Below, one piece after another: positions 19,963 through 32,170 of a stretch of DNA of 32,243 nt (position 1 is its first letter; the number at the start of each line of letters is the position of its first letter). The notes below the pieces were generated by a model. It saw only the letters and a list, made by a program, of their open reading frames with translations, made no database searches and had not been told where the DNA came from. The stretch is taken from positions 1-32,243 of IMG/VR virus record IMGVR_UViG_3300033182_000187. One strand, 5' to 3'. The stretch comes from a virus. Made by a program: the position numbers and the translations under genes.

Positions 19963-20035
19963 GGGGTTATAGCTCAACTGGTAGAGCACCTGCTTTGCAA
20001 GCAGGGGGTTAGGGGTTCGAGTCCCCTTAACTCCA
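19963..20035 (+). tRNA. tRNA-Ala (anticodon TGC)
   Basis: A full 73-base cloverleaf. The acceptor stem is GGGGTTA/TAACTCC with one G-T pair. The D-arm region is AGCTCAACTGGTAGAGC. The anticodon arm is CCTGC-TTTGCAA-GCAGG with TGC at 19996-19998. The T-arm is AGGGG-TTCGAGT-CCCCT, and the discriminator is A. The 3' CCA is not encoded. It reads GCA codons, as in cyanobacterial tRNA-Ala(TGC). A small ACCC-TTCG-GGGT hairpin (19947-19958) lies just upstream and a late promoter starts at its 3' end, so it is at the border between early and late genes. Confidence 0.95.
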
Positions 20036-27718: not shown

Positions 27719-28673
27719 TTCCAAATTTATTGGACTTGTATCCCCTCGACTAGAAAAGTTTAAGAGAGTAAAGGCAAATTTGTACAACTTTCGTTGTCCG
27801 ATTTGTGGTGACTCAAAGAAAAACAAGAGCAAAACACGGGGATATATCTATGGAGTAAAGGAAAATACCAACTTCAAGTGCCATAATTGTGGTGCTTCGA
27901 TGTCTCTTAACAATTTTTTGAAGCAAGTTGACCCTGCTGTTCACAAACAGTATGTCATGGAGAAGTTCAAAGGTGGTTTTACTGGGAGAAATTTCGTTTC
28001 TGAGGAACCAGAATTTAAGTTTGAGGCACCTAAGTTTAAAAGAAAACTGAAACTGCCTAAGGCATCTGAACATCCTAGATCTGCTGGATATCTTACCGCA
28101 AGGAAACTTGATCCGTCTAAATTTTATTATGCCGAACACTTTAAAAAGTTTGTAAACAGTATTAAACCAACATTTGATGACACAAAGTACGATGAAGAGA
28201 GGATAATCATTCCACTTTATTATGAAAAGAACTTAATTGGTCTCCAGGGAAGATCTATAAATCCCAGCCCTGTTAAATACATTACCGTGATGCTTGATGA
28301 TGATGCACCAAAAATCTACGGATTGGATAACATCAGAAGAGATGCTCCAGTCTACGTTACAGAAGGACCTTTCGACAGCACGTTCATTTGCAATGCGATT
28401 GCTATGTGTGGAGCTGATGCTGATGTCAGTCGTTGGGGGATTAGCAATCCTGTTTGGATCTATGATAATGAACCCCGCAACAGAGAGATTACAAACAGAA
28501 TCTCTAAGACCATTGATTCTGGTCAGTCAGTAGTCATTTGGCCTGAGAGCATAGATGACAAAGACATAAATGATATGGTAATGTCTGGACTGGATGTGCA
28601 GTCCGTGATAGAATCAAACACATACTCTGGTTTAGAAGCAAAACTTAAATTTACCACCTGGAAGAAGATATGA
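27705..28673 (+). CDS. 61: DNA primase gp61
   Basis: The primase that makes RNA primers on the lagging strand with helicase gp41. A zinc ribbon is formed by Cys31, Cys34 (CPIC), Cys59 and Cys62 (CHNC). A TOPRIM-type core follows: YVTEGPFDSTF supplies the acidic residue, and IDDKDINDMV the later acidic group. The length of 322 residues is near T4's 342. The stop overlaps the ATG of nrdA-N (ATGA), tying primer synthesis to dNTP supply. Confidence 0.93.
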   Translation: MDHIDSKFIGLVSPRLEKFKRVKANLYNFRCPICGDSKKNKSKTRGYIYGVKENTNFKCHNCGASMSLNNFLKQVDPAVHKQYVMEKFKGGFTGRNFVSEEPEFKFEAPKFKRKLKLPKASEHPRSAGYLTARKLDPSKFYYAEHFKKFVNSIKPTFDDTKYDEERIIIPLYYEKNLIGLQGRSINPSPVKYITVMLDDDAPKIYGLDNIRRDAPVYVTEGPFDSTFICNAIAMCGADADVSRWGISNPVWIYDNEPRNREITNRISKTIDSGQSVVIWPESIDDKDINDMVMSGLDVQSVIESNTYSGLEAKLKFTTWKKI

Positions 28674-30343
28674 CGAACGGCACCAAGGTTAAAAAGAGAG
28701 ACGGAAGAATTGAACCTCTTGACCTAGAAAAGATGCATTTGATGGTTGAAGAGGCAACAAAGGGTCTTGCAGGGGTCTCTGCAAGTCAAGTTGAGATCCA
28801 GTCCGGTATTCAATTTTATGACGGAATTACCACTGGTGAGATTCAAGAAATTTTGATTCGTTCTGCTTCCGACCTCATTGATCTTGATCATCCCAACTAT
28901 CAGTTTGTGGCAGCACGTCTGCTTTTGTTCAGTCTCCGTAAGAGTCTCTATGGCAAGATGAGAGAACTTCCTCATCTTGAGGCACATATCATGGACTGTA
29001 CTAACATTGATGTTTATGATAAAGAAATCTTCCTTAAGTACTCAAAGGAGGAGATTGATAAAGCAAATGGATTCATCGATCATGATCGTGATTTTCTGTT
29101 TACCTATGCTGGTCTGAGGCAGGTTGTAGATAAATACCTAGTACAGGACAGAAGTGGTGGTGGAGTTTATGAAACTCCACAGTTCATGTACATCATGATT
29201 GCCCTGACAATCTTTGCAGAATATCCTAAAGAGACACGTCTCTCATATGTCAAAAGATACTACGACGCAATCTCCAGACACAGACTCAACATTCCCACAC
29301 CTATCATGGCGGGAGTGCGAACTCCACTTCGACAATTTGCTAGCTGTGTTCTTGTTGATGTTGATGACACCCTCGATAGTATCTTTAGCTCTGATATGGC
29401 AATTGGCAAATACGTTGCACAAAGGGCGGGAATCGGTATCAACGCAGGTAGAATCCGTGGCATCAACAGTAAAATCCGAGGGGGTGAAGTTCAGCACACT
29501 GGCGTTGTTCCGTTTCTCAAGAAGTTTGAATCAACTGTCAGATGCTGTACGCAAAATGGCATCAGAGGTGGATCAGCTACGGTTCACTTTCCAATCTGGC
29601 ACCAAGAAATAGAAGACATCATTGTTCTGAAGAACAACAAAGGTACAGAAGATAACAGGGTTCGCAAACTTGACTACTCAATCCAGATTTCAAAACTTTT
29701 CTACGAACGTTTCATCACTGATGGAGAGATTAGCCTCTTCTCACCGCATGACGTACCAGGTTTATATGACGCTTTTGGTACTGATAGGTTCGATGATTTA
29801 TATGTTGGTTTTGAACGAGATGAGTCTGTTCCAAGAAAAACTATTGGGGCACAGAAACTGATCCTTGATCTTCTGAAGGAGAGAGCAGAAACTGGTCGTC
29901 TCTATATCATGAACATCGACCACTGCAATTCACACTCGTCTTTCAAGGACAAGGTTAATATGAGTAATCTTTGTGTTTCTGGTGATACTAAAATCAAAAT
30001 TAGGGTTACGACTCATAAGGAAGTTGCTGGAAAACATACTAAAACTTACAAACTTCCTTTGGAAATTGAAATGAAACAACTTGAAGAACTTATTCAAGAA
30101 GGTCTTCCTTTAGAACTTGTTGAGGTTCTTTCTCGTGATATTGACACTGGTAATCAAGAAATTGATTACCACCAAATCACTGCATTTGCTCAAACATCAC
30201 CGAAAGCAAAAGTAATGAAAATTACTGATGAGGAAAGTGGTAAGAGTATTGTTGTTACTCCAGATCATAAAGTGTATACCAAAAATCGTGGATATGTGAT
30301 GGCAAAGCACCTCAAAGAAACTGACATTCTAGATATTATTTGA
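28670..30343 (+). CDS. nrdA: Ribonucleotide reductase alpha, N-terminal part fused to N-intein half (fractured gene)
   Basis: Class Ia ribonucleotide reductase large subunit, first piece, 557 residues. Residues 1-434 are NrdA. An ATP-cone regulatory domain covers about 1-95, and Cys226 (FASCVLV) corresponds to redox Cys225 of E. coli. The extein stops after MSNL, just before the position of the thiyl-radical Cys439. Residues 435-557 are an N-terminal intein half: it begins with Cys435 (CVSGDTKIKI, splicing block A) and has block B as VVTPDHKVYT (T-x-x-H), then NRGYVMAKHLKETD. The stop comes before any block F/G, which are supplied by the ORF at 31070. It resembles the NrdA-2 split intein type known from marine metagenomes. 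Confidence 0.92.
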   Translation: MTNGTKVKKRDGRIEPLDLEKMHLMVEEATKGLAGVSASQVEIQSGIQFYDGITTGEIQEILIRSASDLIDLDHPNYQFVAARLLLFSLRKSLYGKMRELPHLEAHIMDCTNIDVYDKEIFLKYSKEEIDKANGFIDHDRDFLFTYAGLRQVVDKYLVQDRSGGGVYETPQFMYIMIALTIFAEYPKETRLSYVKRYYDAISRHRLNIPTPIMAGVRTPLRQFASCVLVDVDDTLDSIFSSDMAIGKYVAQRAGIGINAGRIRGINSKIRGGEVQHTGVVPFLKKFESTVRCCTQNGIRGGSATVHFPIWHQEIEDIIVLKNNKGTEDNRVRKLDYSIQISKLFYERFITDGEISLFSPHDVPGLYDAFGTDRFDDLYVGFERDESVPRKTIGAQKLILDLLKERAETGRLYIMNIDHCNSHSSFKDKVNMSNLCVSGDTKIKIRVTTHKEVAGKHTKTYKLPLEIEMKQLEELIQEGLPLELVEVLSRDIDTGNQEIDYHQITAFAQTSPKAKVMKITDEESGKSIVVTPDHKVYTKNRGYVMAKHLKETDILDII

Positions 30344-30344
30344 T

Positions 30345-30402
30345 TTATAGGAAGTGTAATGTCTATATTTTATAAATAGTTATGAGATTACACTTCCTAT
30401 AA
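30345..30402 (+). promoter_or_regulatory. Perfect 16-bp hairpin with late promoter in the loop, covering a start codon
   Basis: The arms 30345-30360 and 30387-30402 are perfect reverse complements. The right arm ends on the A of the endonuclease ATG. The 26-base loop contains TATAAATA (30371-30378). RNA read through from nrdA would fold and block the start codon; RNA from the loop promoter, starting near 30384, would lack the left arm. A six-codon micro-ORF with its own AGGA (ATG 30359 to TAG 30379) runs from the left arm into the promoter. Confidence 0.75.
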
Positions 30403-31076
30403 TGAAAAAATATATTGTTTATAAAATTACTAATAAGAAAAACGGAAAATCTTACATAGGAAAAACTGAATATTCTTTAGAGCATCGTTGGAATCGTCAT
30501 CTATCATTAGCAAGAAATGGTTCTAAGTTTAGATTTCATTCTGCTATTAGAAAATATGGTGAAGATTGTTGGGACTTATCTGTAATTGAAACTTATCAAA
30601 CTGATGATGAAAACTTTATCAACGAAAAAGAAACACACTTCATTAAACTTTTTGAGAGTGATACTAAAAAAGGTTATAATGCTACTTCAGGTGGAACTGG
30701 TGGATGGATGCTTCCCAGATGCTCGCAGAAGGTTCAGGAAGAGTGGAGAAACAACATTTCCGTAAGAACTACTGGTTATAATAATCCAAACTATTCTGGA
30801 CTTACTGACGAACAACTTATAGAAATAGGAATAACGTTTGCCCAAAAATATGGATTTATTGGTGGAAGGCAAAGAATAGTTCAATTTGCTCTTAATGAAT
30901 TGAATGTTAAGTTCCCAAAACATTTTTCCAAAAACAGATTCGGAGGAAACCATCAAAACTTTTATAAATGTATTGAAGAACAAACTGGATTGGTGTATAA
31001 TCCTTATTACAGAGACGAAACTCAAAGAAAACTTGCCAAACAACTTTTAGAACAAAACAGGAGAAAAAAATGTTAA
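30402..31076 (+). CDS. GIY-YIG homing endonuclease, free-standing within fractured nrdA
   Basis: A 224-residue endonuclease. The GIY-YIG domain has IVY at 5-7, YIG at 18-20, the catalytic Arg29 in LEHRWNRH and the metal-binding Glu at 75 or 77 in INEKETHFI. GYNATSGGTGG ends the catalytic domain. The C-terminal half (LTDEQLIEIGITFAQKYGF and on) is a likely DNA-binding region. It sits exactly between the two nrdA halves but is not fused to either, and probably cuts nrdA alleles lacking the insertion. Its stop overlaps the start of nrdA-C (7 bases shared). Expression is probably late, from the promoter within the upstream hairpin. Confidence 0.88.
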   Translation: MKKYIVYKITNKKNGKSYIGKTEYSLEHRWNRHLSLARNGSKFRFHSAIRKYGEDCWDLSVIETYQTDDENFINEKETHFIKLFESDTKKGYNATSGGTGGWMLPRCSQKVQEEWRNNISVRTTGYNNPNYSGLTDEQLIEIGITFAQKYGFIGGRQRIVQFALNELNVKFPKHFSKNRFGGNHQNFYKCIEEQTGLVYNPYYRDETQRKLAKQLLEQNRRKKC

Positions 31077-32170
31077 AGATTGAATATCTTGAAGAAGAAA
31101 TCCCAGTTTATGATATTACCGTAGAAGGAACTCATAATTTCTTCGCAAATGATATTCTAGTTCATAATTGCCAGGAGATTACCCTGCCTACAGATCCTAT
31201 CAACCACATTGATGATGAGTTGGGTGAGATTGCACTGTGTATTCTTTCTGCGGTTAACGTAGGAAAGGTAAGATCTGATGAAGAACTTGAGGATCTTTGT
31301 GATCTTGCTGTTCGTGGTTTGGAAGAACTGATTGATTATCAGGAGTATCCTGTGGCAGCAGCAGAACGTGCTACAAAGGCACGTAGATCTCTTGGAGTTG
31401 GTTTTATTGGTTTGGCACACTATTTGGCAAAACTGGGATATAAGTATGACTCCCAAGAGGCATGGGATGCGGTCCATGGACTGTCTGAGTCCTTTCAATA
31501 TTACCTACTGAAATCTTCAAATCAAATTGCAAAAGAGAAAGGTTGGTGTGAAAACTTTGGTCGTACCAAGTATGCTGATGGAATTCTGCCAATCGATACA
31601 TACAAAAAGGATGTTGATGAAATTTCTAGTCAGGAGTTAGTACATGATTGGGAAGGTCTTAGAGCATCTATCTCCGAACACGGATTACGGCACTCAACAC
31701 TGTCTGCTCAGATGCCATCAGAGAGCAGTTCCGTTGTGTCAAACGCAACAAATGGAATCGAGCCACCTAGAGACTATCTGTCCATTAAAAAGAGCAAAAA
31801 GGGACCACTCAAACAGATTGTCCCTCAATATGGATCTCTTAAAAATAATTATACTCTCCTTTGGGATATGGAGTCCAATCGTGGTTATATTAATGTTGTT
31901 GCTGTGATGCAGAAGTTTTTTGATCAAGCAATTTCTGGTAACTGGAGTTACAATCCTGAGCAGTATCCTGATAATGAAGTTCCAGTGTCCACCATGGCAC
32001 AAGACTTTTTGACTACATATAAGTACGGGTGGAAGACATCTTACTACCAAAACACTCACGACATGAAGAGTGATGAAGAAGTCAAGGAGGAGACCAAAGA
32101 AAGTTTAGAAAGTCTGTTAACTCAATTAGAACAAGCCGAGGAGGGAGAGTGTGAATCCTGTGCAATTTAA
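31070..32170 (+). CDS. nrdA: Ribonucleotide reductase alpha, C-intein half fused to C-terminal part (fractured gene)
   Basis: Second piece of NrdA, 366 residues, with AGGAG (31059-31063) before the ATG. Residues 1-33 are the C-terminal intein half: block F as VYDITVEGTHNFFANDIL and block G as VHN-C, with Asn33 for cyclisation and Cys34 as the +1 nucleophile. From Cys34 on is NrdA: CQEITLPTDP holds the thiyl-radical Cys and the catalytic Glu (E. coli Cys439, Glu441). Cys57 in EIALCILS matches Cys462 with identical 23-residue spacing. TSYYQNT carries the radical-transfer tyrosines, and the tail ECESCAI has the redox cysteines. Joined to residues 1-434 of the first piece this gives 767 residues, a normal NrdA length. 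Confidence 0.92.
   Translation: MLKIEYLEEEIPVYDITVEGTHNFFANDILVHNCQEITLPTDPINHIDDELGEIALCILSAVNVGKVRSDEELEDLCDLAVRGLEELIDYQEYPVAAAERATKARRSLGVGFIGLAHYLAKLGYKYDSQEAWDAVHGLSESFQYYLLKSSNQIAKEKGWCENFGRTKYADGILPIDTYKKDVDEISSQELVHDWEGLRASISEHGLRHSTLSAQMPSESSSVVSNATNGIEPPRDYLSIKKSKKGPLKQIVPQYGSLKNNYTLLWDMESNRGYINVVAVMQKFFDQAISGNWSYNPEQYPDNEVPVSTMAQDFLTTYKYGWKTSYYQNTHDMKSDEEVKEETKESLESLLTQLEQAEEGECESCAI

What the first reader, a model, noticed from the sequence alone, without database searches (positions are those of the whole stretch)
28670..32170. Fractured nrdA: split intein halves separated by a free-standing GIY-YIG homing endonuclease
Two ORFs carry complementary parts of class Ia NrdA. The first ends with an intein N-half (Cys1, TPDH block B); the second begins with a 33-residue intein C-half (blocks F and G, HN-Cys). 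A GIY-YIG ORF lies between, with its own start and stop. Fractured genes with split inteins (gp41-1, NrdA-2, NrdJ-1, IMPDH-1) are known from marine metagenomes, so the arrangement has precedent. The GIY-YIG partner in an isolate-like genomic context is noteworthy. Splicing would yield about 767 residues, a full-length NrdA.
Basis: partly seen in the sequence, partly recalled or inferred. Interest (0 to 1): 0.92.

Follow-up and report, generated by a model that had tools for sequence, protein, structure and literature searches.

The report
Cyanophage nrdA split by homing endonuclease
A virus of marine cyanobacteria carries an essential DNA-building gene broken in two by a selfish DNA-cutting gene, with protein-splicing halves on either side that should rejoin the enzyme; the arrangement is known, but its relatives show stages by which such breaks may arise and decay.

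Summary
The finding is real. Window 28670-32170 encodes class Ia NrdA as two chains: NrdA 1-434 plus a 123-aa intein N-half, and a 33-aa intein C-half plus the last 333 residues. An intact GIY-YIG homing endonuclease gene (HEG) lies between. The joined exteins give 767 residues, 690 identical to S-SM2 NrdA, no gap at the junction. The intein sits directly before the residue aligned with E. coli Cys439. This is a 'fractured gene', a kind already described, with a GIY-YIG example in print and one in an isolate's record: a new member of a known kind.

Apparently new is the allelic series. Of 62 distinct intein regions in capped scans (window included), 47 have the GIY-YIG split, 13 are contiguous in-frame mini-inteins, one (L189) is split with only a HEG scar, one is HNH-split. 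Near-identical inteins differ in HEG presence (L185/L161), and identical HEG DNA sits in different inteins and nrdA lineages (L015/L105). The HEG comes with an inverted repeat that has a T4-type late-promoter motif in its loop, and its 3' end holds the likely ribosome site and start codon of the NrdA C-half. Splicing, cleavage, homing and timing are inferred, not shown.

The parts
28670..29971 (+). NrdA N-extein, residues 1-434 of class Ia RNR alpha subunit
   Evidence: aligned without gap to S-SM2 NrdA
29972..30343 (+). intein N-half, 123 aa from Cys1 (blocks A, B), plus stop codon
   Evidence: intein_Nterm over cut-off, Intein_splicing below cut-off; Cys1 and TP[ED]H in 47 of 47 regions, window included
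30347..30360 (+). left arm of 14-bp inverted repeat (probable control hairpin)
   Evidence: (z -6.3)
30371..30378 (+). TATAAATA, T4-type late promoter motif in the hairpin loop
   Evidence: 3 in the window, 1.15 expected, so not remarkable alone; ATAAATA invariant in 37 of 37 aligned sequences, window included, L191 left out; motif per PMC2984593
30387..30400 (+). right arm of the hairpin, ending 1 nt before the HEG start codon
30402..31076 (+). free-standing GIY-YIG homing endonuclease gene, 224 aa
31059..31063 (+). AGGAG, probable ribosome-binding site of the NrdA C-half, inside the HEG's 3' end
   Evidence: read from sequence; 3' junctions of relatives
31070..31168 (+). intein C-half, 33 aa (blocks F, G, ending HN); its ATG overlaps the HEG stop by 7 nt
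31169..32170 (+). NrdA C-extein, 333 aa; residue 1 is Cys aligned to E. coli NrdA residue 439

Best explanation
This is a fractured nrdA gene of a T4-like cyanophage. A class 1 mini-intein sits directly before the catalytic cysteine of NrdA. A free-standing GIY-YIG homing endonuclease gene has been inserted into the part of that intein where its contiguous relatives have a short linker, so the gene is now read as two proteins. Inferred: the intein halves find each other and splice in trans to give 767-residue NrdA, which should be obligatory because the +1 Cys is the enzyme's radical cysteine. Inferred: on early transcripts reading through from nrdA a 14-bp hairpin covers the HEG's initiation region, and the late promoter in the loop gives a hairpin-free HEG mRNA late in infection, as described for I-TevI, segB and mobE. 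The NrdA C-half is read from a ribosome site and ATG inside the HEG's 3' end, so losing the HEG imprecisely should disable nrdA. Inferred: the nuclease cuts HEG-free intein (or nrdA) DNA of co-infecting phages and the cassette is copied in. Shown: the cassette occurs in many different inteins and nrdA lineages, HEG-free and scar alleles exist, and the HEG is under purifying selection.
For: Anatomy. Gapless joined extein. Insertion before C439. Intein motifs kept in 47 of 47. Contiguous mini-intein L171 folds as a Hint domain (pLDDT 92.2), best PDB match NrdJ-1, E 1.2e-11. HEG: closest solved relative is the I-TevI catalytic domain by sequence (E 2.4e-4) and fold (E 9.6e-4); Y7, G20, R29, E77 and N93 invariant in 22 of 22 aligned HEGs, matching I-TevI active-site positions (E75 from the 1mk0 alignment and title; the rest recalled). 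Mobility: L015/L105 HEG DNA 100% identical, intC 98%, but intN 65% and exteins 72-76%; identical tract from just after the intN stop into intC. exN rejects L105+L015+L017 as a clade, p 0.001, and L070+L026, p 2.4e-6. Presence/absence: 13 contiguous alleles; L185/L161 intN 363/369 and exN 1246/1302 identical, with and without HEG; at least 9 state changes on the exN tree. HEG median dN/dS 0.134. Hairpin. HEG/intC overlap of 7, 8 or 14 nt in 46 of 46 counted.
Against: No splicing, cleavage or expression data. The hairpin shows no covariation: 0 of 14 pairs changed on both sides, and all 500 shuffles pair as well, because the arms hardly vary. TATAAATA alone is not remarkable in the window: 10 of 100 shuffles hold as many. 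The HEG has no clear Shine-Dalgarno of its own. L191 has no such hairpin. intC is hardly more uniform among HEG+ than among HEG- inteins (0.917 against 0.902), so co-conversion of intC by homing is not shown in general. HEG presence is somewhat clustered on the exN tree (9 changes against 11.7 in shuffles; 11 and 20 of 500 as low), so descent as well as transfer shapes it. Only the catalytic part of the HEG model matches a solved structure (pTM 0.50), so the DNA-binding part is unidentified.
Confidence: 0.82

Rival explanations
1. The two NrdA chains work unspliced as a two-piece enzyme, as in phage Aeh1 where mobE splits nrdA; the intein halves are relics.
For: Aeh1 NrdA works in pieces (PMC3653736, passages). 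Relatives here (L037, L147, L165) carry a second break with short tails and no recognisable intein about 15 codons into the C-extein.
Against: All splicing motifs looked for are kept in 47 of 47; intC median dN/dS 0.018; the cysteine aligned with C439 lies directly behind the intein C-half, so an unspliced chain would keep 33 foreign residues at the radical site.
Confidence: 0.06
2. The endonuclease targets intein-free nrdA, and intein plus HEG home together as one unit, rather than the HEG invading inteins.
For: Synonymous divergence is lower in intein and HEG (pS 0.33-0.45) than in exteins (about 0.66), so the intein as a whole also moves between nrdA lineages. Closely related exN carry different inteins (L011, L037, L105; tree distances 0.04-0.12, sequences).
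Against: In L015/L105 the shared tract starts after the intN stop and leaves intN different; L185/L161 differ by the HEG inside the same intein. Both targets may be used.
Confidence: 0.35
3. The inverted repeat is a DNA operator or another element rather than a translational switch.
For: Arms almost invariant, no covariation; no Shine-Dalgarno for the HEG in the stem next to its ATG; I-TevI autorepresses by binding an operator at its late promoter (PMC2988022, passages).
Against: Fold z-score -6.3, 0 of 200 shuffles as stable; position directly before the start codon as in I-TevI, segB and mobE.
Confidence: 0.25
4. Frameshift or assembly artefact.
For: Only that the record is an IMG/VR contig.
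Against: 47 distinct regions with the same split and 46 of 46 counted with an ATG for the C-half overlapping the HEG stop; isolates with the same layout.
Confidence: 0.01

Closest known systems
Fractured genes with split inteins (Dassa et al. 2009, NAR 37:2560; paper not held, contents recalled; cited in PMC3653736 as reporting 7 nrdA and 2 nrdJ interrupted by inteins in GOS data)
   Same: Conserved phage gene broken by a split intein with a free-standing endonuclease gene between
   Different: About half of those loci had Vsr-like endonucleases (recalled); here GIY-YIG. Whether that paper holds loci of this very family could not be checked. Contiguous, HEG+ and HEG-scar alleles at one site are set side by side here
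AceL NrdHF split intein (PMC7891396, passages)
   Same: Phage-like metagenome contig, RNR gene in fractured organisation with an intervening GIY-YIG putative HEG
   Different: Class 3 intein in the beta-subunit gene, 98 + 48 aa; here class 1 in nrdA, 123 + 33 aa
Klebsiella phage KP13-7 nrdA (OP617745.1)
   Same: Cultured phage; intein N-half, GIY-YIG ORF (35% identical over residues 1-182) and intein C-half at the same site
   Different: Jumbo phage, nrdA in more pieces, these pieces annotated as hypothetical proteins
Yersinia phage vB_YenM_TG1 nrdA (KP202158.1)
   Same: Cultured phage, same intein site, split intein
   Different: Endonuclease annotated as HNH in the slot (Pfam HNH only 12.6 bits, below cut-off)
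NrdJ-1 split intein (PDB 8ubs)
   Same: Nearest solved intein by sequence and fold of contiguous relatives
   Different: From a class II RNR gene (recalled)
I-TevI, segB and Aeh1 mobE regulation (PMC2988022, passages)
   Same: Hairpin at the HEG start with a late promoter placed so that late mRNA lacks it
   Different: Here the cassette sits inside an intein, not an intron, intergenic space or plain gene break; no sequestered Shine-Dalgarno seen

Membership tests
Fractured gene with split intein | Conserved gene in two ORFs carrying complementary parts without gap or overlap | tested here: met
   434 + 333 = 767 aa, 690 residues identical to 765-aa S-SM2 NrdA, no gap at junction
Fractured gene with split intein | Complementary intein halves at the break | tested here: met
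   contiguous homologues show the fused form
Fractured gene with split intein | Free-standing endonuclease gene between the halves | tested here: met
   47 of 62 distinct regions of capped scans
Fractured gene with split intein | Trans-splicing | not testable with these tools
   no expression possible
Class 1 intein | Cys1, block B T..H, C-terminal HN, nucleophilic +1 residue | tested here: met
   47 of 47
Class 1 intein | Hint fold | tested here: met
   model of contiguous relative L171, pLDDT 92.2, NrdJ-1 E 1.2e-11; the window's two halves were not modelled together
GIY-YIG homing endonuclease | GIY-YIG catalytic domain with active-site residues | tested here: met
   PF01541 46.5 bits; I-TevI match; invariant residues
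GIY-YIG homing endonuclease | Site-specific cleavage of the HEG-free allele | not testable with these tools
   allele distribution is consistent
I-TevI/segB/mobE type of late control | Hairpin over the translation start with a late promoter inside | tested here: met
   anatomy only, transcription not measured
I-TevI/segB/mobE type of late control | Paired arms kept by compensatory change (my own criterion for RNA pairing) | tested here: inconclusive
   0 of 14 pairs with changes on both sides; arms nearly invariant, so weakly informative
I-TevI/segB/mobE type of late control | Shine-Dalgarno sequence before the HEG start, sequestered in the stem and freed in late mRNA | tested here: not met
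   no purine-rich site before the HEG ATG in the right arm or behind the promoter; the AGGAAG of the left arm lies 47 nt upstream of the ATG. So it works like these systems at most in part

The most novel reading that the evidence does not exclude
The HEG cassette (hairpin with late promoter, nuclease, and a ribosome site plus start codon for the downstream half) is a dedicated intein-splitting mobile element. It enters contiguous mini-inteins, turns them into split inteins without loss of the host enzyme, and can later decay to leave a permanently split intein (L189) or perhaps be re-fused (L078). Its C-terminal part, which shares a short stretch with HNH endonucleases in the same slot, would recognise the intein itself. 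Naturally split inteins without HEG would then be scars of such visits.
Probability: 0.45. Interest if true: 0.72.

Novelty: new member of a known kind. Interest (0 to 1): 0.55.

Why it matters
How naturally split inteins arise is a standing question. Here contiguous, HEG-split and HEG-scar alleles of one intein family at one site exist in phages sampled today; one contiguous/split pair is 96% identical in exN and 98% in intN, so gain, loss and splicing of each state can be tested directly. The family also gives dozens of new split inteins with a conserved 33-aa C-half and very variable N-halves, possible material for protein ligation. The break sits at the radical cysteine of an enzyme for DNA synthesis, which would explain why imprecise loss is not tolerated.

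Tried and rejected
Compensatory changes in the hairpin: I first thought L013/L015 and L105 showed an A-U to G-C exchange (my note 2 says so); the pair count showed a G-U pair next to a mismatch and no covariation. Dropped.

Leader peptides in the hairpin region: the window has short frames there, but their ATGs are not kept across relatives. Dropped.

HEG-driven homogenisation of intC: intC is nearly as similar among HEG-free as among HEG+ inteins. Kept only for single pairs such as L015/L105 and L022/L063.

First extein tree: built on exN plus exC, but exC of L161, L165, L147 and L148 holds other inserts, which made false long branches. Replaced by an exN-only quick tree of 56 of 62 rows; L227 and five rows with incomplete exN (L009, L031, L066, L084, L086) were left out. 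In one search the printed label of the second clade test names other loci; the rows really tested were L070 and L026.

Rfam at gathering thresholds over the window and 8 loci found only a tRNA, so no described group I intron was found for the extra inserts. Dassa 2009 is not held, so its contents are recalled.

Limits of the counts. Each IMG/VR scan keeps the best 80 loci (92, 103, 123, 261, 98 and 175 relatives were found; all 52 were kept), and queries were chosen to find split or contiguous forms, so 47:13 is not a frequency in nature. The 62 regions come plus the window and TG1; of the 81 loci from L227 on, one search printed L241, L243-L294 and L302 only. Rows dropped: 33 of 47 HEG+ loci entered (dN/dS), the rest for incomplete exteins or inserts and L144 for a misjudged start; the HEG- class is 10 of 13 (L173, L192, L211 left out as divergent). 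One search aligned 37 of 47 spacers: L191, which lacks the element, was left out, and 9 as near-copies. One search counted overlaps in 46 of 47 (L144 left out).
Full report
What is there. The window is an IMG/VR virus record of 32243 bases. Its best matches among phage records over 1-25000 are Synechococcus phages S-SM2 (65% covered, 82.8% identical) and Bellamy (51%, 83.7%), so it is a piece of a T4-like cyanophage. At 28670-32170, behind the primase gene and (by synteny with S-SM2) before nrdB, lie NrdA residues 1-434 with a 123-aa intein N-half, a 224-aa GIY-YIG ORF, and a 33-aa intein C-half with the remaining 333 NrdA residues. The joined exteins are 767 aa, 690 identical to the 765-aa S-SM2 NrdA, with no gap at the junction. 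Residue 1 of the C-extein aligns with residue 439 of E. coli NrdA, the radical cysteine (established knowledge, recalled). Base composition changes at the borders: G+C 0.42 in the exteins, 0.28-0.34 in intein and endonuclease gene.

The family. Of 227 loci held, 205 had both ends; these collapse to 62 distinct intein regions, the window's included. 47 are split by a GIY-YIG gene, 13 are contiguous open mini-inteins at the same site, one is the split gene of the cultured Yersinia phage TG1 with an endonuclease annotated as HNH, and one, L189, is split with no endonuclease gene in it. These numbers depend on the queries and caps. All splicing motifs looked for are kept in 47 of 47 split copies. 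A model of the contiguous relative L171 is a confident Hint fold (pLDDT 92.2) with NrdJ-1 as best match. Only 2 records (TG1 twice) of 50,697 phage records match the window's intein N-half at E 1e-5; a contiguous relative as query matched 17 records at E 1e-3, mostly distant or in other genes. So in these collections the close family is seen in uncultured phages.

The endonuclease gene as a cassette. Within the 33 HEG+ loci with complete exteins, median pairwise DNA identity is 0.90 for the endonuclease, 0.92 for intC, 0.70 for intN and 0.73-0.75 for the exteins. L015 and L105 have identical endonuclease DNA while intN is 65% and the exteins are 72-76% identical; the identical tract runs from just after the intN stop into intC. 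The exN data reject a clade of L105 with L015 and L017 (p 0.001) and of L070 with L026 (p 2.4e-6), which the endonuclease groups. Conversely L185 and L161 are 363/369 identical in intN and 1246/1302 in exN, yet one has the gene and the other not. On the exN tree endonuclease presence changes at least 9 times, all 9 forced by starred branches; shuffled labels need 11.7 on average, so presence is also partly inherited. On the intN tree it changes 10 times, 6 forced. Median dN/dS is 0.134 for the endonuclease, 0.018 for intC and 0.45 for intN (synonymous sites of the exteins are near saturation). Synonymous differences are fewer in intein and endonuclease (0.33-0.45) than in exteins (about 0.66), so the intein as a whole also seems mobile.

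Control elements. Between the intN stop and the endonuclease ATG lies a 14-bp inverted repeat (30347-30360 with 30387-30400) with TATAAATA in the loop (30371-30378). Folded as RNA the stretch has z -6.3, while the part behind the promoter folds no better than chance. In 37 aligned sequences ATAAATA is invariant and 97.8% of arm cells pair, against 37-53% when the arms are slid; but no pair changes on both sides, and shuffles of the nearly invariant columns pair as well. L191 lacks the element. The motif alone is not rare in the window (3 found, 1.15 expected). TATAAATA is the late promoter of T4, and NATAAATA that of cyanophage S-PM2 (PMC2984593, passages). For I-TevI, segB and Aeh1 mobE a hairpin hides the ribosome site on early mRNA and a late promoter yields mRNA without the hairpin (PMC2988022, passages). 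The present element has the same layout, but I see no Shine-Dalgarno of the endonuclease in it. At the other end AGGAG (31059-31063) and the ATG of the C-half lie within the endonuclease's 3' end; overlaps of 7, 8 or 14 nt occur in 46 of 46 counted. So the C-half appears to depend on endonuclease DNA for its start.

Scar and possible healing. L189 keeps the left hairpin arm TATAGGAAGTGTAATTTCT directly followed by AAGGAGAGAACAAAATG and intC: the endonuclease gene is gone from the intein, the split and the borrowed start remain. It is one case. The same contig has another GIY-YIG match elsewhere. L078 is contiguous but shares with HEG+ alleles the ELVI- and -LKIEYLEEE borders that the other close contiguous alleles lack; re-fusion after loss of the gene is possible but not shown. 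Two other inteins, probably in other RNR genes (21-28% identity to NrdA exteins), are split with no endonuclease gene (L251, L302).

Target. The same slot holds GIY-YIG-like genes 29-36% identical (L244, L246, L247, L252, L254; L244 is above the Pfam cut-off, L247 below, the others were not scanned) and HNH-like genes (L250 above the Pfam HNH cut-off, L248 just below, L243 = TG1 well below). The two nuclease kinds share a stretch of about 54 residues behind the catalytic domain (hhalign probability 93.5, E 2.3e-7, only three HNH-like rows). This hints that a DNA-binding part is kept while the cutter is exchanged, but the stretch is short and resembles a known mobile module type (NUMOD, recalled). 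Foldseek found no convincing PDB match for the C-terminal part.

What is known. The organisation was described as 'fractured genes' (Dassa 2009, not held, recalled; cited in PMC3653736 with 7 nrdA and 2 nrdJ, passages). A GIY-YIG example in an RNR gene is in print (AceL NrdHF, PMC7891396, passages). Searches of an open-access library for 'split intein' with GIY-YIG and NrdA found 1 paper, and with GIY-YIG alone 7; I read passages of three of these and none describes this nrdA series. The listings of searches gave no such title either; papers outside that library were not searched. Isolates with the layout exist. So membership in a known kind is clear; the value lies in the allelic series.

Shown and inferred. 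Shown by sequence: the split, the joined product, the distribution of alleles in the sample, the cassette borders, the scar. Inferred: trans-splicing, cutting, homing, and timing of expression.

Noticed in passing
L032:5211-7616: nrdA broken twice: besides the GIY-YIG split, what looks like a second split intein after MPSES with an unidentified ORF of about 350 aa between its halves.
   Followed up: partly
L037:4529-5576; also L161, L165, L147, L148: 5 of 13 contiguous mini-intein alleles have a second break about 15 codons into the C-extein, with short non-NrdA tails and no recognisable intein; L037 and L165 have one GIY-YIG-like ORF there, L147 several ORFs. Resembles the Aeh1 genes-in-pieces break.
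   Followed up: partly
L308 (Klebsiella phage KP13-7, OP617745.1 30877-36407): Cultured jumbo phage with nrdA in several pieces: GIY-YIG split intein at the same site and what looks like a second split intein after MPGE; pieces between nrdA_1 and nrdA_2 are annotated as hypothetical proteins.
   Followed up: partly
window 29996-30178 (intN, before TAFAQ) and the same region in relatives: Intein N-halves are extremely variable here (mean DNA identity 0.56 among HEG+) while the rest of the intein is 0.87-0.92; phages with closely related exN (L011, L037, L105) carry different versions. Cause unknown.
   Followed up: partly
L251:4001-4471 and L302:3779-4225: Split inteins, probably in other RNR genes, with no endonuclease gene and only a short spacer; possible further scars.
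   Followed up: no
L078:1960-2000: Contiguous intein whose linker resembles the borders of the endonuclease cassette; may be a re-fused split intein.
   Followed up: partly
contig of L189, G006:C1:17018-17218 (- strand): The contig with the scar allele has another GIY-YIG match over the Pfam cut-off (24.1 bits) away from the intein, upstream of nrdA.
   Followed up: no
L309 (Aeromonas phage Aes508, JN377894.1): Isolate with gp43 broken by a GIY-YIG gene, a group I intron and a split intein with a Vsr-like ORF, as annotated by the depositors.
   Followed up: no
window 19963-20035: tRNA gene (Rfam RF00005, 73.9 bits).
   Followed up: no
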